From NCBI RefSeq assembly GCF_901538355.1, contig NZ_LR593887.1, forward strand, positions 5,680,920-5,744,919: DNA of 64,000 bases. The letters are read 5' to 3'. This DNA is from Tuwongella immobilis. GTDB lineage: Bacteria > Planctomycetota > Planctomycetia > Gemmatales > Gemmataceae. Under the pieces are notes generated by a model. It saw nothing but the letters and a program-made list of their open reading frames with translations. It made no database searches and was not told where the DNA came from. Position 1 is the first letter of the stretch. Each line of letters begins with the position of its first letter. Made by a program: the position numbers and the translations under genes. This document shows, piece by piece, positions 34,544-46,017 of this stretch.

Positions 34544-35356
34544 TTATTTCATCCCCAGCATGGCAACGACAGCGAGCAAGACGAGCAATTGACCGACATA
34601 GGTGGCGAAGCCCAGACAGTCGCCGGTGACACCGCCAATTCGGCGTCGCAAATATCCACACAGCCACAGCACCCAGCCCGCGCTGGCGAACAGGGCCAAC
34701 AGCACGGCCAAGGGGGAGAGGAGCAGGAGCGGCACCATTGTAACGGCGGTGAAGATCATGCCTAGTCCGACTTCGCGCCACGCCAATTGTTGGGCAAGAT
34801 CTTTCGCCAATCCTTCACGATCCGTAACCGGAGGAAGCATCACCATCATCACCAATCCCAGGCTGCGGCCCAACGCCCCGGCGGCGATGCAACTGGCGAT
34901 GATCCAAAGCGTTGTGGGCAATGTGGTGAGCAGGCTGACTCGCAGGGCAAGGGCAAGTCCCAGGCCGACGGTGCCGAAACTGCCAATTCGGCTATCGCGG
35001 AGGATGGTGAGAATCGATTCGCGGGTCCAGCCGCCGCCGAACGCATCGCAGAAATCGGCGACGGCATCTTCGTGGAACGCACCCGTCATCCAGGCTTCGA
35101 TGACGAGCGCCAGCAGCACAGCGACGAGAATCGGCCAAATGCTGCTGGCCAATGCCAGGGTAATGCCGGTGATGGTCCCGACGATCAACCCCACGAGCGG
35201 AAAGTAAATCACTCCCCGACGGAGCGCGGCCTTGGCCTCATCGGCATTGGCCGCATAGGCGGGCACGGGAATGCGAGTGAGAAATTGAACGGCTGCAAGA
35301 AACGCCGCGCGTTCGGTTCGCCATCCGCGCCAACCACCCATCGGAGCCTGCGTCAT
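34544..35356 (-). CDS. cobS: adenosylcobinamide-GDP ribazoletransferase (cobalamin synthase)
   Basis: CobS joins adenosylcobinamide-GDP with alpha-ribazole in the membrane, the last assembly step of cobalamin. Family signatures are AAVQFLTRIPVP at the N-terminus, GVIYFPLVGLIVGTITG, MTGAFHEDAVADFCDAFGGG, ILRDSRIGSFGTVGLGLALA and the C-terminal RRIGGVTGDCLGFATYVGQL. About six membrane helices are visible in 270 residues, the normal length. Its ATG overlaps the stop of the DUF1559 gene by one base (TAATG), so the three genes form one unit. Confidence 0.95.
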   Translation of the reverse strand: MTQAPMGGWRGWRTERAAFLAAVQFLTRIPVPAYAANADEAKAALRRGVIYFPLVGLIVGTITGITLALASSIWPILVAVLLALVIEAWMTGAFHEDAVADFCDAFGGGWTRESILTILRDSRIGSFGTVGLGLALALRVSLLTTLPTTLWIIASCIAAGALGRSLGLVMMVMLPPVTDREGLAKDLAQQLAWREVGLGMIFTAVTMVPLLLLSPLAVLLALFASAGWVLWLCGYLRRRIGGVTGDCLGFATYVGQLLVLLAVVAMLGMK

Positions 35357-36165
35357 TATTCCCGTCCGAATTCGATATCATTGCTGCCGATGTCCCAAAC
35401 TTGTTCCCGTTTCCGGAGTTCGGTAGCGACAGTCGATTCCCAGCTTGGGGCACCGTTGATGGTCGGCGTGCGGGTTTCCACGTGCCCATCCGCGAAGCAG
35501 ACATTGGCGATGCCCGCGTGCCGGAAATGCACGTTGGGGAAACTCTGCGACGGGGCCGACAGATACCAGTTCTCGGTCAATTTATCGAACGGCGCGGCAA
35601 ACGGCACATTCGCGCTATCCGCAAAGGCAATCGTCGCGCTCGTGCCCCGACGATTGCTCACCGAGACGATCGATTCCCCGGCCACATCCCACGTCGAAAA
35701 GTTATCGTTGTAGGCATAGCTGGCAACCGGAATATCGAATCGCAGCGTGAAGCGTTCCGACAGGAACAACGGGCATTGCACAATCGCGCGGTTCCCTTCC
35801 AGATACGGCCCCAGAATCCCTCGGCTGGGATCCATTTTGCGCGGTGCCGACGTGTTATCCGTAATCAGCCCAAACCAATACAAATCGGTAAACGTCACCG
35901 TGGGACTCGATCGCATGCTCGAGACGGTGAAGCGGCCGCCGTTGACATCGGCGTGATTGTGCAATGCCAAGCCCAACTGCTTGAGGCTATTTTGGCACTT
36001 GGCCCGCGCGGCAGCCTCGCGGACTTTCTGAACCGCGGGCAACAACAGGCCGATCAGAATGGCGATGATGGCAATCACCACCAGCAATTCAATGAGCGTA
36101 AAGGCTGGACGAGAAAGCGGTTGCGATGAGCGATTGGTGGAACGAACTGACTGTGTCATATGCAT
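35356..36165 (-). CDS. DUF1559 prepilin-like protein in the cobalamin operon, 269 aa
   Basis: The N-terminus has a type IV prepilin signal: a basic leader ending in [20 protein letters not shown], then [20 protein letters not shown]. The rest is the DUF1559 domain with [12 protein letters not shown]-like ending ([19 protein letters not shown]). Planctomycetes have dozens of such type II pseudopilin-like secreted proteins, and their functions are unknown. The start is ATG 36165 or ATG 36159, two codons apart; neither has a strong ribosome site. It is the first gene after the cobalamin riboswitch, and its stop overlaps cobS (TAATG), so it is co-regulated with cobalamin synthesis. Confidence 0.88.
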
Positions 36166-36296
36166 TGACCACACTTTCTGCCGGTCCGGGCAGACGGTCA
36201 GTGCGTCGGTGGCGAAATCGCGAGCGGTGCCTGCGCGCGCAGACAGAAGTTCAACCACTCGCATGCCTTGGTCCGAGGCACCGAGGAAACTCCTCA

Positions 36297-36480
36297 CGCG
36301 GCAGGTCTTCTGGCTCTCAGCTACAAGCGATTGGGGACCACCTTCCCAACATGTCGAAGGCATGTCAGTGGTATCAATCTGTCCCGCAATCTCACTGATT
36401 ACAGCAGCGGCCCTGCGCCGGATTTGCACCGGCTTCCCTTTTCATTTCTCGCCCTGCATCGACGGGTGAGAAAACCGCCT
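36297..36480 (-). promoter_or_regulatory. cobalamin (adenosylcobalamin) riboswitch
   Basis: Read on the reverse strand, the 5' part has GGGAAGCCGGTGCAAATCCG followed by GCGCAGGGCCGCTGCTGTAA, and the 3' end has the canonical B12 box AGCCAGAAGACCTGC at 36301-36317. Between them ACCACTG (GCCACTG-type) and GGGAAGGTGG occur in the correct order. This is the complete cobalamin aptamer. It ends ~135 bp before the DUF1559 start. A GAGGA/TCCTC hairpin at about 36284-36296 may belong to the expression platform. It should shut off DUF1559-cobS-cobC when adenosylcobalamin is abundant. Confidence 0.93.
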
Positions 36481-36752
36481 GAGTCACCCTTTTCTTAAAC
36501 GATGGCGATGGAATTGACCAGAGCGAGCCGAAAAATTCTTCACTCGCAATCGCCCCGAATGTCCGCATCTTCCGCAATTCGCATCGGCGAATGATCCCGA
36601 TTTCGTGTCGTGGAGCGCATGGCGTAATTCTGCGGATCGGAATCGCCGGAATCGGGACCGTCAGCGAATGCTTGACGCTTCAGCGGCAACGTGCGATCGT
36701 ACATCCCAGACTAATCACGCCGTGCCTCTCCCACCCAGAAAGGATCGCCTGG

Positions 36753-38207
36753 ATGATTCGTGGATTTCGCAACGAAGATGGTGCCGCCGTGCTGGTCGGC
36801 TTGCTCCTTTCGGGGCTGGGGATGCTCAGTCTCGCGGGGATCGACCCGTTCGGCTGGGTGATTGCCGCCAAAACATGGACCGATCCCAGCTTGGCCTTGC
36901 AGCCAGCGAATCCGAAATCCTATGCGATTTCGGCCCCGATCTCACTCGGCCTGACGTTCGTCTTTTTGCTGGGTTTGTTCATCGCCGCCACGAAATGGGC
37001 CGGTGAATCCGCACGCAGTTTCGCGCTACGGTTTCCCGTCGTTTTCGCCCTGACTTACGGTGCCTGGACGCTGGGCCAATGGGCCTATCTCGCCGCCACA
37101 CCGGATAAGTTGCCCAAAGGCGTCACCTGGACCATGGGATTGACCGGGGAGGCGGGCTATCTGTTGGCTCTGTTATTGGGACTGCTGATCGGGAACTTTC
37201 TGCCCGGATTCACCCGCTGGCTCGCCCCGGCATCGCGTTCGGAACTGTTCATCAAGACAGCCGTGGTGCTGTATGGCGCAGTCTTGGGCGTGAAGGCCGC
37301 CACCGAGACGGGCCGCGCCTCGGCGATTCTCTTCCGCGGAATCGCCGCCATCATCGAAGCCTACCTGATTTATTGGGCATTGGTCTATTGGATCGCCCGC
37401 AGTTGGTTCAAATTCAGCCGCGAATGGGCGGCTCCGCTGGCGTCGGGCATCTCGATTTGCGGCGTCTCGGCGGCAATCACCACTGGAGCGGCGATTCGAG
37501 CGCGGCCCGTGGTGCCGGTGATGGTGTCATCGCTGGTGGTGGTGTTTGCCGTGGTGGAAATGCTGCTGCTGCCGTGGATGGCCCGCGTGATGCTGCCGGA
37601 TCAGCCGATGGTTGCCGCCGCCTGGATGGGACTGGCCGTCAAAACCGACGGTGCCGCCATTGCCAGCGGCAGTATCACCGAGGGATTCTTCCTTGCCGAT
37701 GCGGCCAGCAAGGGCATCCATTACGAAGCCGATTGGATGAAGAACACCACCACCACCGTGAAAGTGTTCATCGATGTCTTCATTGGCATTTGGGCGCTGG
37801 TGCTGGCATTCGTGTGGTCCCGATTCATCGATCGAAAAGACGATGGCAGCGGCCCAACGAAACTCCCCTGGGCCGAAATGTGGGCCCGATTCCCGAAATT
37901 TGTGCTGGGCTACTTCCTCACCTTCGGCGTGGTGCTAACGCTGGGCTTGCTACTGCCGGAATTGCGCGCGGACCTCAACAAAGCGACCGGCGAATCGACC
38001 GACCAGTTTCGACGCATCCTGTTCAGTCTGACATTCTTCTCCATCGGCCTGGCCGCGAATTTCCGTCGGCTTTGGGCGGAGGGGCTGGGCAAGCTAGCGT
38101 TGGTGTATGTCGTTTGCCTGTTTGGATTTATCATCTGGATTGGCTTGGCAATCTCGTGGCTATTCTTCGCGGGAATGCTCCCGCCGATCACACAACCCGG
38201 AGCCTGA
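36753..38207 (+). CDS. YeiH-family putative sulfate exporter, 484 aa
   Basis: The protein has about 11 membrane helices. The central block LASGISICGVSAAITTGAAI followed by RARP matches the YeiH/PF03601 signature (SICGXSA), and EAGYLLALLLGLLIGNFLPG and IGLAANFRRLWAEGLGKLAL are typical. Members are annotated as putative sulfate exporters; the evidence for substrate is thin. It is considerably longer than the ~340 residues of E. coli YeiH, with an N-terminal extension holding two or three additional helices and longer loops. ATG 36753 has AAGGA about eight bases upstream. It is divergent from the cobalamin operon and followed after 3 bp by a small membrane protein gene. Confidence 0.78.
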   Translation: MIRGFRNEDGAAVLVGLLLSGLGMLSLAGIDPFGWVIAAKTWTDPSLALQPANPKSYAISAPISLGLTFVFLLGLFIAATKWAGESARSFALRFPVVFALTYGAWTLGQWAYLAATPDKLPKGVTWTMGLTGEAGYLLALLLGLLIGNFLPGFTRWLAPASRSELFIKTAVVLYGAVLGVKAATETGRASAILFRGIAAIIEAYLIYWALVYWIARSWFKFSREWAAPLASGISICGVSAAITTGAAIRARPVVPVMVSSLVVVFAVVEMLLLPWMARVMLPDQPMVAAAWMGLAVKTDGAAIASGSITEGFFLADAASKGIHYEADWMKNTTTTVKVFIDVFIGIWALVLAFVWSRFIDRKDDGSGPTKLPWAEMWARFPKFVLGYFLTFGVVLTLGLLLPELRADLNKATGESTDQFRRILFSLTFFSIGLAANFRRLWAEGLGKLALVYVVCLFGFIIWIGLAISWLFFAGMLPPITQPGA

Positions 38208-38210
38208 CCC

Positions 38211-38402
38211 ATGAGCGACCCGATTCCGCAAAAGCCGATTCGCCCCAGCAACGAAGAAATCGCCCAGGCCATGGCCGAGCAACCCGTTGAACCGCTGTTG
38301 CCCGCCGAGAAGTGGCTCATCGGCGGCAGCCTCACACTGGGGATTGTGCTGTTAGCCCTACTCGGCTGGCTCACGAAAACCTATTTCCCCATTCCAACAT
38401 AA
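38211..38402 (+). CDS. small single-helix membrane protein, 63 aa
   Basis: The start codon is 3 bp after the YeiH-like stop, so it is almost certainly translated with it. The protein has a soluble N-terminal half (PIRPSNEEIAQAMAEQPVEP) and one transmembrane helix (WLIGGSLTLGIVLLALLGWL), ending KTYFPIPT. No family is recognised. Small proteins coupled to transporters often act as accessory subunits; here that is only a position-based guess. Confidence 0.65.
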   Translation: MSDPIPQKPIRPSNEEIAQAMAEQPVEPLLPAEKWLIGGSLTLGIVLLALLGWLTKTYFPIPT

Positions 38403-38434
38403 TTTCCGATCCCCCTTCCACCGGATCAACAGAA

Positions 38435-38479
38435 TTCGGGCGAGATGCCCCAGCTTCAACTGGAACCATCTCGCCCGAA
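38435..38479 (+). terminator. terminator hairpin after the exporter operon
   Basis: A 13-bp perfect inverted repeat, TTCGGGCGAGATG at 38435-38447 and CATCTCGCCCGAA at 38467-38479, with an inner CCAG/CTGG pair. Only a weak T-rich stretch follows. Position right after the small membrane gene supports transcription termination. It lies 18 bp before the first 318-bp element. Confidence 0.65.
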
Positions 38480-38496
38480 ATTGATTGACACGATTT

Positions 38497-38814
38497 TAGT
38501 CCGACAGCCGTAGTTGTTCAGTCGGGTGGTTTGGCTCTCCGTTTCCGGTAATGGCATTGCCGCGAGCGGTGCTGGTGTCGGCGTCGCCACATCGACCAGG
38601 CCACGACTTGCTCGGATGCTGGCAGGAACGACCACACCACCTTCAGCAGCAACTTTCGCACCTCGGGGACGCTCAGACCGAAATGCGTTGGCTGACCGCG
38701 TCGACCTCCGCCGCCCACCCTTGCACCTGTTCCACCAGAGGCCAACCTGACTTGACTCACCCTCGCCACAAGTCTTGATCCAGACGATTGTAGCAGATAC
38801 GGCTGGAGGACTAG
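38497..38814 (-). mobile_element. 318-bp IS701-derived MITE-like element, copy 1
   Basis: The copy runs from TAGTCCGACAGCCGTA on the left to TACGGCTGGAGGACTA (plus G) on the right; the ends are inverted repeats with two mismatches. The reverse strand holds a frame (38518-38769) with SVPEVRKLLLKVVWSFL and VAWSMWRRRHQHRSRQCHYR, which resembles from memory the C-terminal tail of IS701-type transposases; the rest of the transposase is absent. The left flank reads TTAG, the right CTAG. Its right end supplies the TAG stop codon of the gene at 38811-39356. Near the right part it reads ACTCACCCTC where copies 2-4 read AATGCCCCTC. Confidence 0.8.
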
Positions 38815-39356
38815 AAGTCTTCTCTAGCTGGGAGTCGAAGGTCCCGATCAGGTGATGCCGCCACGCTGTCAGTAAGTCGGGATCCGCCCTGCCACTTCTC
38901 ATAAGCATCAGGGCCGATGTAGCAGTCCGCAATTTTATGGAACATCAGACGCATGTCTCGTCGGTATAGCTTCAATAATTTCACAGCGGCATCGCTGGAA
39001 TTTTTGGCCAAAAAGGCACCTTGAATAATGCAACCATCACCGTAAGTGCCACCAGGGAGGATAACAACCGCAGAAGGATTGTAGTCGTGATCAACGAAAA
39101 GCTGATCTGTGACATATTTATTCTTTCTTAGTATCAAATGGGTTTCTGGTGAGAGGATGAGATAGCGAGGGTCGGTGTCGTCCGTGCCACTGGGAGAAAC
39201 ACCCAGTGAGGGGATTTGCGAGGCCGAAGCGTATTTGGGGACAGACGGATCCGGGAACCGTCCGAATGGGTAATAAATAAGGGAATAATTACGCTCTATC
39301 TGTTCGAGTAGAGTAATAATGTCTCCGCGAGTCGCAAAAAACATTGTCCTTAGCAT
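38811..39356 (-). CDS. hypothetical protein A between repeat copies, 181 aa
   Basis: No domain is recognised with confidence. The protein starts MLRTMFFATRGDIITLLEQI and has a mixed alpha/beta character (HLILRKNKYVTDQLFVDHDY, CIIQGAFLAKNSSDAAVKLL); it looks like a small cytoplasmic globular protein. ATG 39356 has GAGGT seven bases upstream. The TAG stop lies inside the terminal CTAG of element copy 1, so the reading frame ends exactly where the repeat begins. Composition is more AT-rich than the surrounding chromosome. Confidence 0.7.
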   Translation of the reverse strand: MLRTMFFATRGDIITLLEQIERNYSLIYYPFGRFPDPSVPKYASASQIPSLGVSPSGTDDTDPRYLILSPETHLILRKNKYVTDQLFVDHDYNPSAVVILPGGTYGDGCIIQGAFLAKNSSDAAVKLLKLYRRDMRLMFHKIADCYIGPDAYEKWQGGSRLTDSVAASPDRDLRLPAREDF

Positions 39357-39463
39357 TAGCGGTACCTCGGAAAAGAAGTTACATTCCGTTCCTGTTGGTC
39401 ACGATCAATAACCTACAGCTTCAGAAAAGTATACTCTTCGAATTGCCTTTAGATTCCCTGTGC

Positions 39464-39781
39464 TAGTCCTACAGCCGTAGTTGTTCAGTCGGGTGGTTTG
39501 GCTCTTCGTTTCTGGTAGTGGCATTGCCGCGAGCGGTGCTGGTGGCGGCGTCGCCACATCGACCAGGCCAGGACGTGCTCGGCTGCTGGTAGGAACGACC
39601 ATACCACCTTCCGCAGCAACTTTCGCACCTCGGGGACGCTCAGACCGAAATGCGTTGGCTGACCGCGTCGACCTCCGCCGCCCACCCTTGCACCTGTTCC
39701 ACCAGAGGCCAACCTGACTTGAATGCCCCTCGCCACAAGTCTTGATCCAGACGATTGTAGCAGATACGGCTGGAGGACTAG
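39464..39781 (-). mobile_element. 318-bp IS701-derived MITE-like element, copy 2
   Basis: Left end TAGTCCTACAGCCGTA, right end TACGGCTGGAGGACTA(G), one mismatch between the inverted ends. CTAG is present on both sides, consistent with a 4-bp target duplication. The transposase-tail frame on the reverse strand (39485-39736) reads SVPEVRKLLRKVVWSFLPAA and EHVLAWSMWRRRHQHRSRQC. Length is identical to the other copies with only substitutions. The right end overlaps the stop codon of gene B. Confidence 0.8.
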
Positions 39782-41079
39782 CGATCCATCAACTTAAGAA
39801 TTTGGATATATGTTAATTCAGCTTTACAAACTCTCAGTATTTGATTGAGCCAATTTCGCCAGTAAGTTTGACCGCGGTCGGTTTGTACAATCTCTAAACC
39901 AACAAACTCACCAATTGCGATCATTTCCGCCCAAATCGATGCGTCCCAGTGATCCCACGACCCACCTTTTTCATTCACTTCTCGTTCAAAGTTATCCAGC
40001 CAAATGCGTTTCATGAATACTTTTCGCCGATAAGCGTCAGACACACCAGTGATCGTCTGGTAAACCGCATGGCAAGCAACAGGGACTAAAGCGCCGATTC
40101 CTACAGAATTCACGTATGCAAAGCAACCTTCAATGTGTCGTTCAAGCTGCCATGTGATTTCAATCGATGATACGGTTTGACCTCGAAGGAGACGATAACA
40201 GATTCTTAAAATCTGATCGGGTAGCCCATGAAGGAACTCTGGCATTTGCGATTCGATCCGTCGCCATTCATGCATGGTGTCAGAGGCAACCAGATACGCA
40301 AGCACGGATCGCCTGAGCACCGAGGTGTCAGGATAGCAGCGATCCATCAGAAACCATAATCGAACTCGCCAGGAGGAATCCAAACGTCCGGTTTCTTCAA
40401 TTGAAACCGATAAGGTTTCGATCAGTTCATCAATCGATGGATACAAGATCGAAGGTGGTGTAACGCCCCCATACCATCCCTCATGATCATATCCCAGTTG
40501 AAAGCGAATGGGGGGGATTGTCGGAAATCCGTCTTTTGGGAATCTCAGCCCTTCGCTTACTCCTTTCCACAACTGATCTCGGATAAATTCGACAGGAAAG
40601 TTGTTTGGCGTCATCGATAGAATGTCTTCTGCGTTTCCCGCAATCGTACTGATACCAACTTGAGAATGCTGAAACACATATTCAGACAATCTGAATATGT
40701 GGAGGTGCATTTTCTCGTAATCATCTTGAAGAGCTTCAGGTAACCCATCGAGTTCCTCCCCAGCAAGTTGATATGCCGTGCTAGTGGTGTACAATAACGA
40801 AGTAAGTAAGACTCCCCAAGCTGCCAGTCGCCAATCAGGAGAATAAATACTTAATCGTTGTATTGAATACTTCGGATGGGCTATTGTTATCTTGTAAAGC
40901 TCATCGGCGGATATTGACTCATCCTGAATCCATTTCCATGCTTGAGCGAACGCATTATCGATATGACGTTTAAAATTAGGCAGAGGCGTCATCGTCATTG
41001 CCGCAGCTTCGCCGAAAACGAGAAGTGTTCCGACACGAAGTTTGGCGGGCCAACTCAGGAAATTATCAAAAGGATTCAT
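39778..41079 (-). CDS. hypothetical protein B between repeat copies, 433 aa
   Basis: I recognise no family. The protein is largely alpha-helical with many aromatic and Leu positions (GVLLTSLLYTTSTAYQLAGE, FVFQHSQ-like and LRICYRLLRGQTVSSIEITW) and no signal peptide. It fills the space between copies 2 and 3 exactly: its TAG stop is in the terminal CTAG of copy 2, and its ATG is three bases from the left end of copy 3. No Shine-Dalgarno is seen, so expression would have to start within the element, or the true start lies downstream (for example Met28, MTMTPLPNFKRHIDN). Composition is AT-rich for this genome. Confidence 0.65.
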   Translation of the reverse strand: MNPFDNFLSWPAKLRVGTLLVFGEAAAMTMTPLPNFKRHIDNAFAQAWKWIQDESISADELYKITIAHPKYSIQRLSIYSPDWRLAAWGVLLTSLLYTTSTAYQLAGEELDGLPEALQDDYEKMHLHIFRLSEYVFQHSQVGISTIAGNAEDILSMTPNNFPVEFIRDQLWKGVSEGLRFPKDGFPTIPPIRFQLGYDHEGWYGGVTPPSILYPSIDELIETLSVSIEETGRLDSSWRVRLWFLMDRCYPDTSVLRRSVLAYLVASDTMHEWRRIESQMPEFLHGLPDQILRICYRLLRGQTVSSIEITWQLERHIEGCFAYVNSVGIGALVPVACHAVYQTITGVSDAYRRKVFMKRIWLDNFEREVNEKGGSWDHWDASIWAEMIAIGEFVGLEIVQTDRGQTYWRNWLNQILRVCKAELTYIQILKLMDR

Positions 41080-41082
41080 GAT

Positions 41083-41400
41083 TAGTCCGACAGCCGTAGT
41101 TGTTCAGTCGGGTGGTTTGGCTCTCCGTTTCCGGTAATGGCATTGCCGCGAGCGGTGCTGTTGGCGGCGTCGCCACATCGACCAGGCCACGACTTGCTCG
41201 GATGCTGGTAGGAACGACCACACCACCTTCAGCAGCAACTTTCGCACCTCGGGGACGCTCAGACCGAAATGCGTTGGCTGACCGCGTCGACCTCCGCCGC
41301 CCACCCTTGCACCTGTTCCACCAGAGGCCAACCTGACTTGAATGCCCCTCGCCACAAGTCTTGATCCAGACGATTATACCCGATACGGCTGTAGGACTAG
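41083..41400 (-). mobile_element. 318-bp IS701-derived MITE-like element, copy 3
   Basis: Left end TAGTCCGACAGCCGTA (as in copy 1), right end TACGGCTGTAGGACTA(G) (as in copy 4), one mismatch between ends. Left flank TTAG, right CTAG. The reverse-strand frame 41104-41355 again encodes the transposase-like tail. Its right end overlaps the TAG stop of the WD40-like gene, and its left end directly abuts the start of gene B. Confidence 0.8.
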
Positions 41401-42404
41401 CAACTTGATACGATGGCAAGAAGATGAACCTTCCCAAAAGAATCGCCAACGGCAATTGTTTTGCCATCAGGACTTATCGCTAAAGCATCAACTGATACCC
41501 CTGAGATGTCCTCCTCCTGAGCAACGTTGTTTTCAACATTGATAACGGTTTGTGTCAAACCTTCTGGATTGTATGACGCCACAATCTGACCAGTGAGTGA
41601 ATCCCATAAGATAACGTTGCCACGATCGTCGCCAGATGCCAAAATCCCCCCATCAGACAGTAGTAATAATACATTCACTTTACATTCTTGAGCGAATGAT
41701 ACTTCTGGCGTGAAATCTGGCACCACAAAGGCTTGGAGATATGGAGGTTGAGTCATTGCAGCGTAAAGGATTGACTCGTTTGAGGACAGAGCTAGAGACT
41801 TAACTGCCGGGAATCCTCGATTTCCTTGACTCTGGTTGACTTGGTATTGAGCTATCGGAACCCAACGAGTGATGTCCCATAGTTGAATCAAGCCTTCCCA
41901 TCCACCGACTGCAAGTTTGCCCGCTGAAACCGAACTAAAGGAACGAACGGATTGAGGAAATCCACTTAGCGAAGTGGAAGTGTAATCGCTTGTGTCCCAT
42001 CGAACGACAGGATTAATTTCATTCCCTCCCCAGATTAGCCAATGTCCATCTGGAGTATATTGCAAACAATTTGGCCCATGCCTTCCAAGACGAAGTCGTT
42101 CGCTCCTGGTCAATCTATCTGAAGCAAAACTGTATATTGTGCATTGTTCAAAGCCAGTGCAAGCAAATTCAGCCTTAACTGGATGAAATGCAGTAAAAGC
42201 TGTTGCAGATGCTCTCCTCCGAGTTTTAGCGATCTGGATTCCTTCAGTGCTTACAAGACGCACTTCCCCGACCACATCATCATCCTCGTGTGACCAGTAT
42301 TGTCCAGACACAAGCAGTCTATCCGGTCCCACGAACCAAAGAGAGTTAATCGCTTTTGGCATAATCTGAAGAACCGAAATCGGACTTAATTGATGATCGA
42401 GCAT
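41397..42404 (-). CDS. WD40-repeat-like beta-propeller protein, 335 aa
   Basis: Repeated blades are visible: NCLQYTPDGHWLIWGG ending VVRWD, AGKLAVGGWEGLIQLWDITR, DGGILASGDDRGNVILWDSL and DALAISPDGKTIAVGDSFGK. These are typical WD/GH-type repeats forming a propeller, used for protein-protein contacts. No catalytic domain or signal peptide is present. ATG 42404 lies 12 bp after the stop of the truncated frame at 42417-42704 and has AGG about eight bases upstream. The TAG stop lies in the terminal CTAG of element copy 3. Partner and role unknown. Confidence 0.75.
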   Translation of the reverse strand: MLDHQLSPISVLQIMPKAINSLWFVGPDRLLVSGQYWSHEDDDVVGEVRLVSTEGIQIAKTRRRASATAFTAFHPVKAEFACTGFEQCTIYSFASDRLTRSERLRLGRHGPNCLQYTPDGHWLIWGGNEINPVVRWDTSDYTSTSLSGFPQSVRSFSSVSAGKLAVGGWEGLIQLWDITRWVPIAQYQVNQSQGNRGFPAVKSLALSSNESILYAAMTQPPYLQAFVVPDFTPEVSFAQECKVNVLLLLSDGGILASGDDRGNVILWDSLTGQIVASYNPEGLTQTVINVENNVAQEEDISGVSVDALAISPDGKTIAVGDSFGKVHLLAIVSSC

Positions 42405-42416
42405 TTGTGCAACCTG

Positions 42417-42704
42417 TTACGGGGCAAAAAGTTTGAATTTCCTGATTTCAAATATTTTTCCGTATTGCTTTTCCAGTGTCTCGAACATCGTTTTAACTGC
42501 CCCCGGTGGCAATGTTCCGTCGTCGTTGAGTCGCATCGCTGCTGCTGCAATCTCATCTCCAGCGAGCACAATTTTTGTTGTGCCGGTCGGGGCATGCCCA
42601 TTTTGTATGGAATCTCCAGCGACCCGAAGCCAATCTTCCAATACGGTTCTTGGGACTGAATATTGACCTGTTTTAATTTGCCAAATTTCTGTCCCACGAC
42701 AATG
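42417..42704 (-). pseudogene. truncated/frameshifted gene remnant D next to element copy 4
   Basis: The reverse strand has a gene-like frame, TEIWQIKTGQYSVPRTVLED followed by WLRVAGDSIQNGHAPTG, IVLAGDEIAAAAMRL and the ending KQYGKIFEIRKFKLFAP, open for 95 codons from after a TGA at 42705-42707. No ATG with a ribosome site begins it; the first annotated start is a TTG at 42641. Just upstream a different frame (ADIVVGQ) looks coding, so a single-base frameshift near the ACAGAAATTTGG stretch is likely. Copy 4 of the element begins 19 bp beyond. It is followed after 12 bp by the WD40 gene. Family unknown. Confidence 0.5.
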
Positions 42705-42723
42705 TCAGCATCGATTGTGGTAC

Positions 42724-43041
42724 TAGTCCTACAGCCGTAGTTGTTCAGTCGTGTGGTTTGGCTCTCCGTTTCCGGTCGTGGCATTGCCGCGCGCGGTGCT
42801 GGTGGCGGCGTCGCCACATCGACCAGGCCACGACTTGCTCGGATGCTGGCAGGAACGACCACACCACTTTCCGCAGCAACTTTCGCACCTCGGGGACGCT
42901 CAGACCGAAATGCGTTGGCTGACCGCGTCGACCTCCGCCGCCCCCCCTTGCACCTGTTCCACCAGAGGCCAACCTGACTTGAATGCCCCTCGCCACAAGT
43001 CTTGATCCAGACGATTATACCCGATACGGCTGTAGGACTAG
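42724..43041 (-). mobile_element. 318-bp IS701-derived MITE-like element, copy 4
   Basis: This copy has perfect 16-nt inverted ends, TAGTCCTACAGCCGTA and its complement, with CTAG on both sides. The transposase-like tail is in frame 42745-42996 on the reverse strand. Unlike the other three copies, its right end does not form a stop codon; gene E ends 24 bp further on. It is inserted between gene E and the truncated gene D. Confidence 0.8.
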
Positions 43042-43064
43042 TAACGAAGAAGCTGATTAATGAG

Positions 43065-43496
43065 TTAATCGTTTTTTTCGTTCTTGTCGTCAGGCTTTTC
43101 GTGAAGGATCGCGTCAATCATTTCCTCGGAAAGCTGATCGACGAATTTCCCTGCAAGTAAATGTCCGAGGCTTTGAATCTCGATACCATTCCTGAAGAAT
43201 ATGATGTCAAAGAGCGTACCATCACGATGATAAAATCGCCATTCGCCTTCTTGATGTCCAAATCGATACGCTCCTTCTGTCATCAATTGGCCACTTTTTG
43301 AGTAATCACAATATTTGCCATGAGCCATTCCGTTAGAATAACTAATGATCACCCTTATTTCACCTGTATTATCTATGCCTGCATAACAGCCGTCTGGAAT
43401 CCGACTCACGTTACCAAATTCCTGGAAATTAGTCCGAATCTGTTGTGGTCCTTTGAGAAGCTGTCGAATATCGATTCTGATAAGTTCAGTTGACAT
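43065..43496 (-). CDS. MORN/YwqK-like repeat protein E, 143 aa
   Basis: The middle has MORN-type repeats: GMAHGKYCDYSKSGQLMTEG followed by AYRFGHQEGEWRFYHRDGTL, as in YwqK-type proteins sometimes annotated as antitoxin or immunity components. The N-terminus (TELIRIDIRQLLKGPQQI) and the acidic Lys/Asp-rich C-terminus are not recognised. ATG 43496 is chosen; the TTG at 43523 would add nine residues. It is the most upstream gene of the repeat-separated block and lies ~50 bp from the IS5-type insertion sequence. Any link to toxin neutralisation is guesswork, as no toxin gene is seen. Confidence 0.65.
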   Translation of the reverse strand: MSTELIRIDIRQLLKGPQQIRTNFQEFGNVSRIPDGCYAGIDNTGEIRVIISYSNGMAHGKYCDYSKSGQLMTEGAYRFGHQEGEWRFYHRDGTLFDIIFFRNGIEIQSLGHLLAGKFVDQLSEEMIDAILHEKPDDKNEKND

Positions 43497-43549
43497 ATAT
43501 CCCCATTCCGAAAGAATGACCAATCATATCTCGTCCTATAGTTTGCTTA

Positions 43550-44462
43550 GGTCCGTGTGTTTCTATTGTCTAAATTCGATAAAGGAAATATCTTTTTGAT
43601 TAGCGTTTATTGACGATCGATAGTCGTCGTAATCGGAGAAAGCCGAAGATCAGATACGCGACGCCGAGGAACATCGACTTGCGTTTTTCGTAGCGGGTTG
43701 CGAAGCGACGGAACTGCTTGGCTTTGGCAAACAGCCGCTCCACTTTGTTCCGATCCCGGTAGCCTTCTGCGTCGAATGGAGCTGCTTCCACGCGATTGCT
43801 CCGGCTCGGGATATTCGGGTTGATATCACGGTTCACGCACGCTTCTCGTTGGGAATCACCGTCGAAGCCCTTATCGCCAACGATTTCGTCGACCTCAGGC
43901 ACCCGATTCAGTGTGGCCTCCAGCAACGGTTTCAGGCGTGGGGCATCGTGATCCTGGCCTGGACGGACCTCGATCACGATCGCCGTATCCTCATCGGCTG
44001 CCGTGAGAATCACTTTGGTCGAGAGGCCACCCCGGCTGCGGCCAAGACCTTCACGGCGAGCACTTCGTGCGGCACCGATTTTTTTTTCTTGCGACGTGCT
44101 CCAGCCGCATGCTGATGGGCGCGAATGACGGTCGAGTCGATGAGAATGCGCCGCAGTTCGCCCAGGTCCGGATTGGCGTTCAGGAGCTCAAACAGCTTCT
44201 GTAAACTGCCGGATCAGACCCATCGACCGAAGCGGTTATAGACGGCATCCCATCGGCCAAATTCGCTGGGCAGATCGCGCCAGGGGATTCCGGTCCGCGC
44301 CCAGTAGAGAATCGCCTCGAAGAACATCCGATCAGGGAGTCGGGGAGGCACTCCGCCAACAAAAAGTTTGGCCTTGGCAACGAGCGGTTCGAGGATCGTC
44401 CAGTGATCGTCGGTTAGGATCGTCCGCATCGAATCGCCCCTTTTGATGATCAGTATTGGCCT
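43550..44462 (-). mobile_element. degenerate IS5-family insertion sequence (about 0.9 kb)
   Basis: The coding body is an IS5-type transposase. Possible ends are marked by CTTAGGTC near 43546-43553 on the forward strand and CTTAGGCC near 44457-44464 on the reverse strand, an 8-bp inverted match with one difference; beyond that the ends diverge, so the exact borders are uncertain. Size would be ~913 bp, normal for this family. It lies at the right edge of the repeat array and just outside the PhoD gene. Confidence 0.55.
43600..44429 (-). pseudogene. IS5-family transposase in two frames with an internal stop
   Basis: The N-terminal frame (44429 to 44214) starts MRTILTDDHWTILEPLVAKA and has GIPWRDLPSEFGRWDAVYNR, then a TGA at 44214-44216 where the family should continue. 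The same frame resumes with SGSLQKLFELLNANPDLGEL and LIDSTVIRAHQHAAGARRKK, reaching a run of nine A. A shift of frame there leads to GLGRSRGGLSTKVILTAADE and the DDE part (VGDKGFDGDSQREACV, NKVERLFAKAKQFRRFATRY). The A9 run is a plausible programmed frameshift site as used by many IS5 elements. The TGA is a point lesion, so the copy is probably dead. Confidence 0.85.
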
Positions 44463-44525
44463 AAGATGTTACCAAAAAAGACTGATAGCTCGTCAACAAG
44501 GCCGAATTCATCTCATCACACCAAT

Positions 44526-45896
44526 TCACGGATTCACTTTTAAATCGTTAAGATCCCGAATGATGAGGCGCGGTCCGTTGTTGGACTGCGTTATCATCCC
44601 CGTGGCACGGATGGTTTTGTTGAGATACTTTTCCCCCGTGACGGTATCTTTGCCTTCGGGGAGATCGTCAAGCGCAATTGCGACGGTGAAATTGGTCTTC
44701 GTGCGGAACGATCGCTCGGAGTTGAGATAGAAGAACGGCCCACCTTTGCCGGTGGATTGCACTTTCATCTCGACGGTGGCGCGCACGTTGCGTTTCTCAA
44801 ACGCTTCGGCAGGAGTCAGCACACCGGGCAGCGTTTCGGTGGGGGTGCGCGGGGCTCGTGCGGTGCTTCGGGGCTGTAAGGTGCTGAGCGAAATTTTCTG
44901 CTGGACCGTCACTTCCCCCTGATCGTCGCGGATCTGCAGCCGAATGATCGGATCGGCGACCGACCAATCGATATCGATCATGCCGAAATGATCACCGTAT
45001 GGCATGCCACCCACTCGATAGCGATTCTTCTCCGGCGCGCGCCACGTCTTCGACGCCTGATTCAGTCCGCTGGCCGTCAGATCATACAGCGGATAGCCCA
45101 CCGCATCGCTGGAAACCGACAGTTCCGCCAGGTGGCGATCGCCCGAAAGCAGAATCACGCCTTTGGCTTGCGTATCCTTGATGAGCTGGAACAGCCGCTT
45201 GCGCTCCGCAGGAATCGTCGCCCATTTTTCATACGGATGATCTTCGGAAAGCACTTGAATGCCTGAGCCAATCAGCCGCACTTCCGCCGGTTGCTTCAGT
45301 TGTTCTTCCAGCCATTTCCATTGCGCTTCGCCCAAAAAGGTCGCATCCGGGTCGGTATTCGGCAGATAGCCGTTTTCCGGGCCGCCCTTCTGGATCGGAC
45401 TGCGATGATAGCGACCATCCAGCAGAATCACTTGGACGCGTTTTCCTTCCGGCCCATACATTTTCGCATTGTAGATCCCTTCTTGCTTGCGAAGCGGATC
45501 GTTCGCGGGCAGGTCGAGGAAGTCGCAGAAGAGTTGCTGCGCGCCCTTTTTGCCTTCAAATTCTACACCCGCATCATTGCGGCCATAATCGTGATCATCC
45601 CAAGTTGCTTGGATCTTGCAATCTCGGAATAATTTCGCATAGCCGGGCACTTCTTTGGCCTTTTGATATTTCTTGCGGATCACTTCCATGTCGGAAGAAT
45701 CGCCGTAGATGTTATCGCCCAGCAGCAAAAAGACTTCGGGCTTCGCGGCGTGGATCGCATCCCAAATTGGCTGGGGCTTTTCTTGATGAATACACGACCC
45801 AAGCCCAATTCGGCGAACGGGTCCGGATTCCGATTGGGCCAACGCTCCAAGTGGAGCCAGCAGCATGGCGAGGGTGCCAAGAAGAAGGGATCGCAT
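44526..45896 (-). CDS. secreted PhoD-like alkaline phosphatase/phosphodiesterase, 456 aa
   Basis: A signal peptide (RSLLLGTLAMLLAPLGALAQ) precedes a PhoD-like metallophosphatase domain: IGLGSCIHQEKPQPIWDAI, PEVFLLLGDNIYGDSSDM, CKIQATWDDHDYGRNDAGVE, then VILLDGRYHRSP and GVILLSGDRHLAELS. These carry the D, GDN, DDHD and GDRH metal ligands. The final ~110 residues (VRATVEMKVQSTGKGGPFFY, ATGMITQSNNGPRLIIRDL) are a separate OB-like domain also seen in planctomycete secreted proteins. ATG 45896 has AGGAA seven bases upstream and begins the signal peptide. It is monocistronic, downstream of the lipoprotein/DUF1559 pair. Confidence 0.88.
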   Translation of the reverse strand: MRSLLLGTLAMLLAPLGALAQSESGPVRRIGLGSCIHQEKPQPIWDAIHAAKPEVFLLLGDNIYGDSSDMEVIRKKYQKAKEVPGYAKLFRDCKIQATWDDHDYGRNDAGVEFEGKKGAQQLFCDFLDLPANDPLRKQEGIYNAKMYGPEGKRVQVILLDGRYHRSPIQKGGPENGYLPNTDPDATFLGEAQWKWLEEQLKQPAEVRLIGSGIQVLSEDHPYEKWATIPAERKRLFQLIKDTQAKGVILLSGDRHLAELSVSSDAVGYPLYDLTASGLNQASKTWRAPEKNRYRVGGMPYGDHFGMIDIDWSVADPIIRLQIRDDQGEVTVQQKISLSTLQPRSTARAPRTPTETLPGVLTPAEAFEKRNVRATVEMKVQSTGKGGPFFYLNSERSFRTKTNFTVAIALDDLPEGKDTVTGEKYLNKTIRATGMITQSNNGPRLIIRDLNDLKVNP

Positions 45897-46017
45897 GGGA
45901 TGAGTTCCTCGAACACAGCGTTGCAACACTGGTTCGAGGATAATCAGTCCCGAACGACTTGGAAAGCCGTCAGTGGCAGGATGAGCAAAACTTCACATGA
46001 CTTACCGAATTATTCGA

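What the first reader, a model, noticed from the sequence alone, without database searches (positions are those of the whole stretch)
38497..43041. Four identical-length 318-bp elements alternate with orphan genes, and three sit exactly on a gene's TAG stop codon
Copies at 38497-38814, 39464-39781, 41083-41400 and 42724-43041 all measure 318 bp with substitutions but no indels, all in the same orientation. In three cases the terminal CTAG of the element provides the TAG stop codon of the gene on its right (genes ending at 38811, 39778 and 41397), so insertion at an in-frame YTAG leaves the protein intact. The genes between are on one strand and AT-richer than the rest. I infer that a transposon targeting YTAG is tolerated at stop codons and may fix there. 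An integron-like cassette array is the competing view, since the repeats lie immediately 3' of each gene.
Basis: partly seen in the sequence, partly recalled or inferred. Interest (0 to 1): 0.8.

Follow-up and report, generated by a model that had tools for sequence, protein, structure and literature searches.

The report
CTAG-loving mini-transposons among immunity genes
Four near-identical copies of a crippled mobile element sit between probable bacterial immunity genes; they land on stop codons mainly because the element inserts at CTAG and those were the harmless CTAG sites, though the copies seem to have exchanged sequence since and may help shuffle the genes.

Summary
Four same-strand, indel-free copies (311-bp core TCC…GGA plus 4-bp flanks) lie at 38496-43041, and three right-hand CTAGs supply the TAG stops of genes ending at 38811, 39778 and 41397. 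The repeats are a MITE: an IS701-family element that kept its inverted ends and the two edges of its transposase gene and lost the middle. Full-length ~1.4-kb relatives occur in other genomes; 32 of 36 of their insertions have identical 4-bp flanks, 24 of them CTAG, so the target is CTAG rather than a stop codon. The restored island has seven CTAGs; the four occupied are exactly those breaking no gene, three of them stops. Relatives show no significant stop excess in most tests. In this genome a fourth copy also sits on a stop, so a mild preference stays possible. An integron is unsupported. New member of a known kind in an unusual setting.

The parts
38500..38810 (+). MITE copy E1, 311-bp core, flanks TTAG / CTAG
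39467..39777 (+). MITE copy E2, flanks CTAG / CTAG
41086..41396 (+). MITE copy E3, flanks TTAG / CTAG; chimera of an E1-like left and an E4-like right
42727..43037 (+). MITE copy E4, flanks CTAG / CTAG, intergenic
38811..39356 (-). gene1, 181 aa, probable immunity protein; TAG stop lies in the right flank of E1
   Evidence: a paralog follows and overlaps a PT-HINT ORF by 4 bp
39778..41079 (-). gene2, 433 aa, Imm6 domain; TAG stop lies in the right flank of E2
   Evidence: (Imm6 E 2.8e-9, over cut-off)
41397..42404 (-). gene3, 335 aa, WD40 repeats; TAG stop lies in the right flank of E3
42417..42641 (-). gene4, short ORF of 74 aa, 5' end possibly decayed (by inspection)
   Evidence: no Pfam match over cut-off
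43065..43523 (-). gene5, 152 aa, MORN_2 repeat; stop 23 bp from the right flank of E4

Best explanation
The repeats are four copies of a non-autonomous IS701-derived MITE. An ancestral IS701-family element lost most of its transposase gene; a ~510-bp form survives at two places in the genome, and a further ~195-bp deletion gave the 311-bp form, found only here. While a transposase was available in trans, copies inserted by the family's 4-bp target duplication, mostly at CTAG. In a compact AT-rich operon of probable immunity genes only insertions that broke no gene survived: three CTAG stop codons and one intergenic CTAG. Insertion into an in-frame CTAG is silent because the duplicated target leaves TAG on the gene side. 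Afterwards the direct repeats exchanged sequence by recombination or conversion, leaving chimeric copies. Shown: element identity, target, site occupancy, mosaic structure. Inferred: movement in trans, selection against gene-breaking insertions, the immunity role of the operon, and recombination as the cause of unequal flanks (C-to-T decay explains those alone as well).
For: The ends and the edges match an IS701-family transposon: the relative's protein P0001 hits NF033540 (IS701) at 1.6e-130, over cut-off, and copy A encodes a fragment 69% identical to P0001 residues 1-89. 32 of 36 relative insertions have identical 4-bp flanks, 24 of them CTAG. Of seven CTAGs in the restored island the four occupied are exactly those breaking no gene (1 in 35 by chance, a test chosen after seeing the data). 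Eight 2:2 sites fall into three conflicting groupings (4, 3, 1); E1 and E3 differ at 3 of 178 left positions and 7 of 133 right ones, E3 and E4 at 9 left and 1 right.
Against: The 311-bp form occurs four times in 4.5 kb and nowhere else in 6.69 Mb, always in one orientation; random transposition does not predict this. Flanks are unequal in E1, E3, copy A and a 123-bp element at 1992706. Copy A, at another locus, also sits on a stop (TAA of a Glyoxalase gene), and these gene stops meet the right end in 4 of 4 cases. TAG is a rare stop here (4 of 83 called genes) and 0 of 41 other CTAGs are on called stops (3 of 4 against 0 of 41, p 0.0003). No full-length copy of the subgroup is now in the genome.
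Confidence: 0.8

Rival explanations
1. The element, or selection on it, truly favours stop codons (gene 3' ends) beyond its CTAG specificity, for example through coupling to transcription or translation.
For: 4 of 10 copies in this genome are on an ORF stop, against 19 of 259 local sites with an ORF of at least 140 aa (p 0.006) or 31 of 259 at 100 aa (p 0.03). These stops meet the right end in 4 of 4. 3 of 4 against 0 of 41 called-stop CTAGs. In relatives 6 of 65 ends against 49 of 1232 at 150 aa (p 0.05). Three relative stop sites have Pfam-supported genes.
Against: Three of the four are in one operon where the only harmless CTAGs were three stops and one intergenic site. Counted by locus, 2 of 7, p 0.10 at 140 aa and 0.21 at 100 aa. 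In relatives there is no significant excess at 60, 80 or 100 aa nor with the gene caller.
Confidence: 0.12
2. Gene plus element moves as a unit: a transporter-IS-like arrangement in which IS701 ends carry immunity genes between loci.
For: The three gene2 paralogs in this genome lie within 2.2 kb of other IS701 relics: 4023865-4025142 and 4025386-4026663 before 4027301, and 5925142-5926431 between 5924371 and 5926901. E3 is a chimera.
Against: The relics at 5924260 and 5926901 are internal fragments lacking ends, so they do not bound a transposable unit there. ORF lists differ around the paralogs. Both features may simply gather in the same toxin islands.
Confidence: 0.12
3. Integron-like cassette array with the repeats acting as attC sites.
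For: Repeats lie 3' of same-strand genes. The genome has an integron-integrase-like half gene at 5816100-5816564 (218 bits, below cut-off).
Against: No GTTRRRY or RYYYAAC in any of the 4 copies. The repeat derives from a transposon. Of 13 matches to the integrase model the nearest is about 92 kb away and partial.
Confidence: 0.02
4. The island was imported as a block, elements included, from another genome rich in the 311-bp form.
For: Low GC of the island; the 311-bp form is absent elsewhere in the genome.
Against: Resident copy A is 97% identical over the left 185 bp and the elements are GC-rich. In a sample of 60 other genomes of the family no match spans more than 182 of the 324 query bases (at most 12 candidates scored in many genomes).
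Confidence: 0.2

Closest known systems
IS701 family (NF033540, DDE_5 transposase)
   Same: Terminal inverted repeats, transposase edges, 4-bp target duplication in relatives
   Different: The window copies have no transposase, only its edges. The CTAG target of this subgroup contrasts with the absence of a consensus reported for Geobacillus IS701 members (PMC8024623, passages seen).
Bacterial MITEs in general (recalled)
   Same: Short, no transposase, inverted-repeat ends shared with a full IS, several copies
   Different: Confined to one 4.5-kb stretch, one orientation, mosaic copies
Orphan immunity genes of polymorphic toxin systems (recalled)
   Same: Imm6-type gene and a relative of a PT-HINT-linked gene, without a recognised toxin among the ORFs scanned
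   Different: Genes separated by direct-repeat MITEs that lie on their stop codons
Integron gene cassettes
   Same: Repeats 3' of same-strand genes
   Different: No attC core motif, no integrase near the array, repeats derive from a transposon

Membership tests
IS701-derived MITE | Ends match those of a full-length IS701 element | tested here: met
   Left 17 nt TCCTACAGCCGTAGTTG identical in E2/E4 and in the G031 IS
IS701-derived MITE | Interior derived from an IS701 element by deletion | tested here: met
   Copy A keeps a stretch matching P0001 residues 1-89 at 69%; DDE_5 there is below cut-off (22.4 of 27 bits); P0001 is IS701; the 311-bp form lacks ~195 bp more
IS701-derived MITE | 4-bp target duplication | tested here: inconclusive
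   Relatives 32 of 36 identical; window copies 2 of 4 identical, 2 differ at one base
IS701-derived MITE | Moved in trans by a full-length element's transposase | not testable with these tools
   No full-length subgroup copy in the genome; the divergent IS701 at 2128910 showed no matching ends within 3 mismatches (L047)
Integron cassette array | attC core sites GTTRRRY / RYYYAAC in the repeats | tested here: not met
   none in any of 4 copies; motif recalled
Integron cassette array | integrase gene at the array | tested here: not met
   Nearest of 13 TIGR02249 matches is a half gene about 92 kb away, below cut-off
Orphan immunity gene array | genes homologous to immunity proteins without an adjacent toxin | tested here: inconclusive
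   gene2 Imm6 over cut-off; gene1 paralog abuts a PT-HINT ORF; gene3 and gene5 only WD40 and MORN; function untested

The most novel reading that the evidence does not exclude
Stop-codon-docked MITEs act as recombination joints for an immunity-gene array: each element supplies the stop codon of the gene before it and a block of homology for swapping or deleting the genes between, so a dead transposon became an integrase-free cassette system for orphan immunity genes.
Probability: 0.15. Interest if true: 0.65.

Novelty: new member of a known kind. Interest (0 to 1): 0.35.

Why it matters
It shows how an apparent stop-codon preference can arise from a CTAG target plus loss of gene-breaking insertions, a trap for anyone reading insertion maps. 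It points to a CTAG-targeting IS701 subgroup found in Planctomycetes and alphaproteobacteria. It also gives a concrete case in which MITE copies among probable immunity genes have exchanged sequence, which bears on how such repertoires are reshuffled.

Tried and rejected
Stop-codon targeting by the IS was tested with a self-trained codon gene caller and, because that caller missed the AT-rich island genes, with an ORF-into-site test on 65 ends. Truncation as the source of the TAG stops: gene1 ends within a residue of three homologs, but gene2 is about 7 aa shorter than its three paralogs, and gene3's closest relative in the genome is a C-terminal fragment that reads on past the end, so mild shortening of gene2 is possible. 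A 2-bp TA duplication was considered for the unequal flanks; the 8 relatives with identical non-CTAG 4-mers reject it for the family. A promoter or terminator in the island: 7 promoter-like sites against 6.1 expected and 4 terminator-like against 4.6. Rfam over 36000-46000: only a riboswitch outside the island. Viral contigs, one left-end pattern: 0. Plasmids: 2 partial matches at 72%, one under a gene annotated transposase. Empty-site comparison: no same-genus genome appeared.

Rows dropped and limits. One search accepted only ends within one mismatch of a pattern; L057 and L078 (short flanks) and L121 (duplicate of L120) were dropped; L111, CTAG on both sides, was missed. The G050 copies have other ends and did not enter. 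One search counted the two tandem rows of L038 as one site, giving 35. One search used 22 of 760 where one search gives 22 of 761. Of 11 relative ends with an ORF of at least 60 aa I gave Pfam only the three that looked coding. Copy B's ends were too decayed to test and count as 'no' in the 4 of 10. Copy A's left flank also ends a 145-aa frame without Pfam match; I took it as chance.

Full report
What is there. The four repeats are real. Each has a core of exactly 311 bp from TCC to GGA, with terminal inverted repeats (left TCCKACAGCCGTAGTTG, right end reversed TCCTMCAGCCGTATCKG) and 4-bp flanks TTAG/CTAG, CTAG/CTAG, TTAG/CTAG and CTAG/CTAG for E1 to E4. Minus-strand ORFs of 181, 433 and 335 aa end in the right-hand CTAG of E1, E2 and E3. 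The fourth copy lies between genes.

What the repeat is. The genome (6,690,754 bp, one contig, 96% complete) holds the short form only here, a ~510-bp form at 304184-304700 (A) and a decayed one at 4027301-4027804 (B), plus fragments near 5879527, 5882581, 5920626, 5924260, 5926901 and 6178093. A separate element with a 123-bp core and similar inverted ends, seen by inspection, starts at 1992706. Copy A encodes the start of an IS701-type transposase (69% identical to residues 1-89 of P0001; DDE_5 below cut-off). P0001, from a ~1.4-kb relative in genome G031, matches the NCBI IS701 model at 1.6e-130; about 50 further conserved residues of that gene lie in another frame, so the G031 copy is full-length but may be frameshifted. 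The repeats are therefore an internally deleted IS701 element, a MITE. No full-length copy of the subgroup was found in this genome.

Target. Among 92 loci scanned (12 fetched stretches and the 80), 36 insertions had both ends and enough flank. 32 have identical 4-mers: 24 CTAG, 3 CTAA, 3 TTAG, 1 CTAC, 1 CTAT; 4 do not match. Two copies in G031 stand in tandem sharing one CTAG. The family duplicates 4 bp and prefers CTAG.

Stop codons. The island with elements removed has seven CTAGs: three stop codons, one intergenic, three inside genes. The four that break no gene are occupied and the three in genes are free. Given CTAG targeting and loss of gene-breaking insertions, no stop preference is needed. 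In relatives 2 of 35 sites are on called stops against 22 of 761 control sites (p 0.29). ORF-based tests give 11 of 65 against 179 of 1232 at 60 aa (p 0.59), 10 against 123 at 80 (p 0.20), 8 against 85 at 100 (p 0.13) and 6 against 49 at 150 (p 0.05). Three of the eleven candidate ends were given to Pfam and all three matched (DUF5615, glycosyltransferase 2, Sel1).

Against my reading. Copy A, at an unrelated locus, has its right flank on the TAA stop of a Glyoxalase gene. So 4 of 10 copies in this genome are on stops against 19 of 259 local sites at 140 aa (p 0.006; 2 of 7 loci, p 0.10) and 31 of 259 at 100 aa (p 0.03; by locus p 0.21). These stops meet the right end in all four cases; copy A's left flank also ends a 145-aa frame without Pfam match. 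TAG ends only 4 of 83 called genes and 0 of 41 other CTAGs are on called stops, so 3 of 4 in the array is an excess (p 0.0003), although the caller misses the island's own genes.

The genes. gene2 is an Imm6 protein over cut-off. Among 294 genomes of the phylum, relatives of gene2 were found only in this genome, as three paralogs within 2.2 kb of IS701 relics. Relatives of gene1 were found in 3 other genomes and once more here; that paralog overlaps by 4 bp the end of a PT-HINT ORF, the usual place of an immunity gene. gene3 is a WD40 protein, gene5 a MORN protein, gene4 short. By inspection, gene3 and gene2 were 2 bp apart before E3 inserted, if that junction is original. I read the island as an orphan immunity operon; that is inference.

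Recombination. Eight 2:2 sites split three ways: 4 group E1 with E2, 3 group E1 with E3, 1 groups E1 with E4. E3 is close to E1 on the left (3 of 178 differ) and to E4 on the right (1 of 133 differs), and shares the left flank TTAG with E1; all four right flanks are CTAG, so that side does not discriminate. A crossover or conversion between direct repeats explains the chimera. The unequal flanks of E1, E3, A and the 123-bp element are each a single transition, so C-to-T decay could explain them alone.

What remains odd. The short form is confined to 4.5 kb and to one orientation. With no second strain I cannot tell local spread from import of a ready-made array.

Literature. Library searches: IS701 with YTAG, 0 papers; with target site and TTAG, 0; with CTAG and transposase, 1 (PMC8024623, passages: no consensus target); IS701 family with target site duplication, 1 (PMC8944449, passages: no CTAG); MITE with IS701, 1 (PMC9208149, listing only). 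Searches on MITE, CTAG and stop codon, on IS701, direct repeats and Planctomycetes, on target site, overlap and stop codon and on orphan immunity with transposable elements were seen as listings, apart from PMC8024623. Tuwongella with transposase, 0. ISfinder was not searchable. That the genome resembles Tuwongella immobilis by size is recalled, not tested.

Noticed in passing
window 36283-36494 (-): Cobalamin riboswitch (RF00174, 103.7 bits) upstream of an ORF with a prepilin-like N-terminus by inspection (about 35356-36087), an unusual partner.
   Followed up: no
G000:C1:5816100-5816564, outside the window: Half of an integron-integrase-like gene (218 bits to TIGR02249, below cut-off), about 92 kb from the array.
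   Followed up: no
window 43600-44429 (-): IS5-family transposase in two separate ORFs beside the array (the half tested is below the NCBI cut-off, over Pfam's).
   Followed up: no
L038 1896-4687: Two full-length IS701 elements in tandem sharing a single CTAG, a possible dimer intermediate.
   Followed up: partly
L151 2207-2337: A second mini-element (123-bp core) with related ends, flanks CTAG/CTAA, just upstream of an apparent gene start not checked further.
   Followed up: partly
L139 and L141: PT-HINT ORFs near copies B (below cut-off) and A (over cut-off), with a SUKH-type ORF near B.
   Followed up: partly
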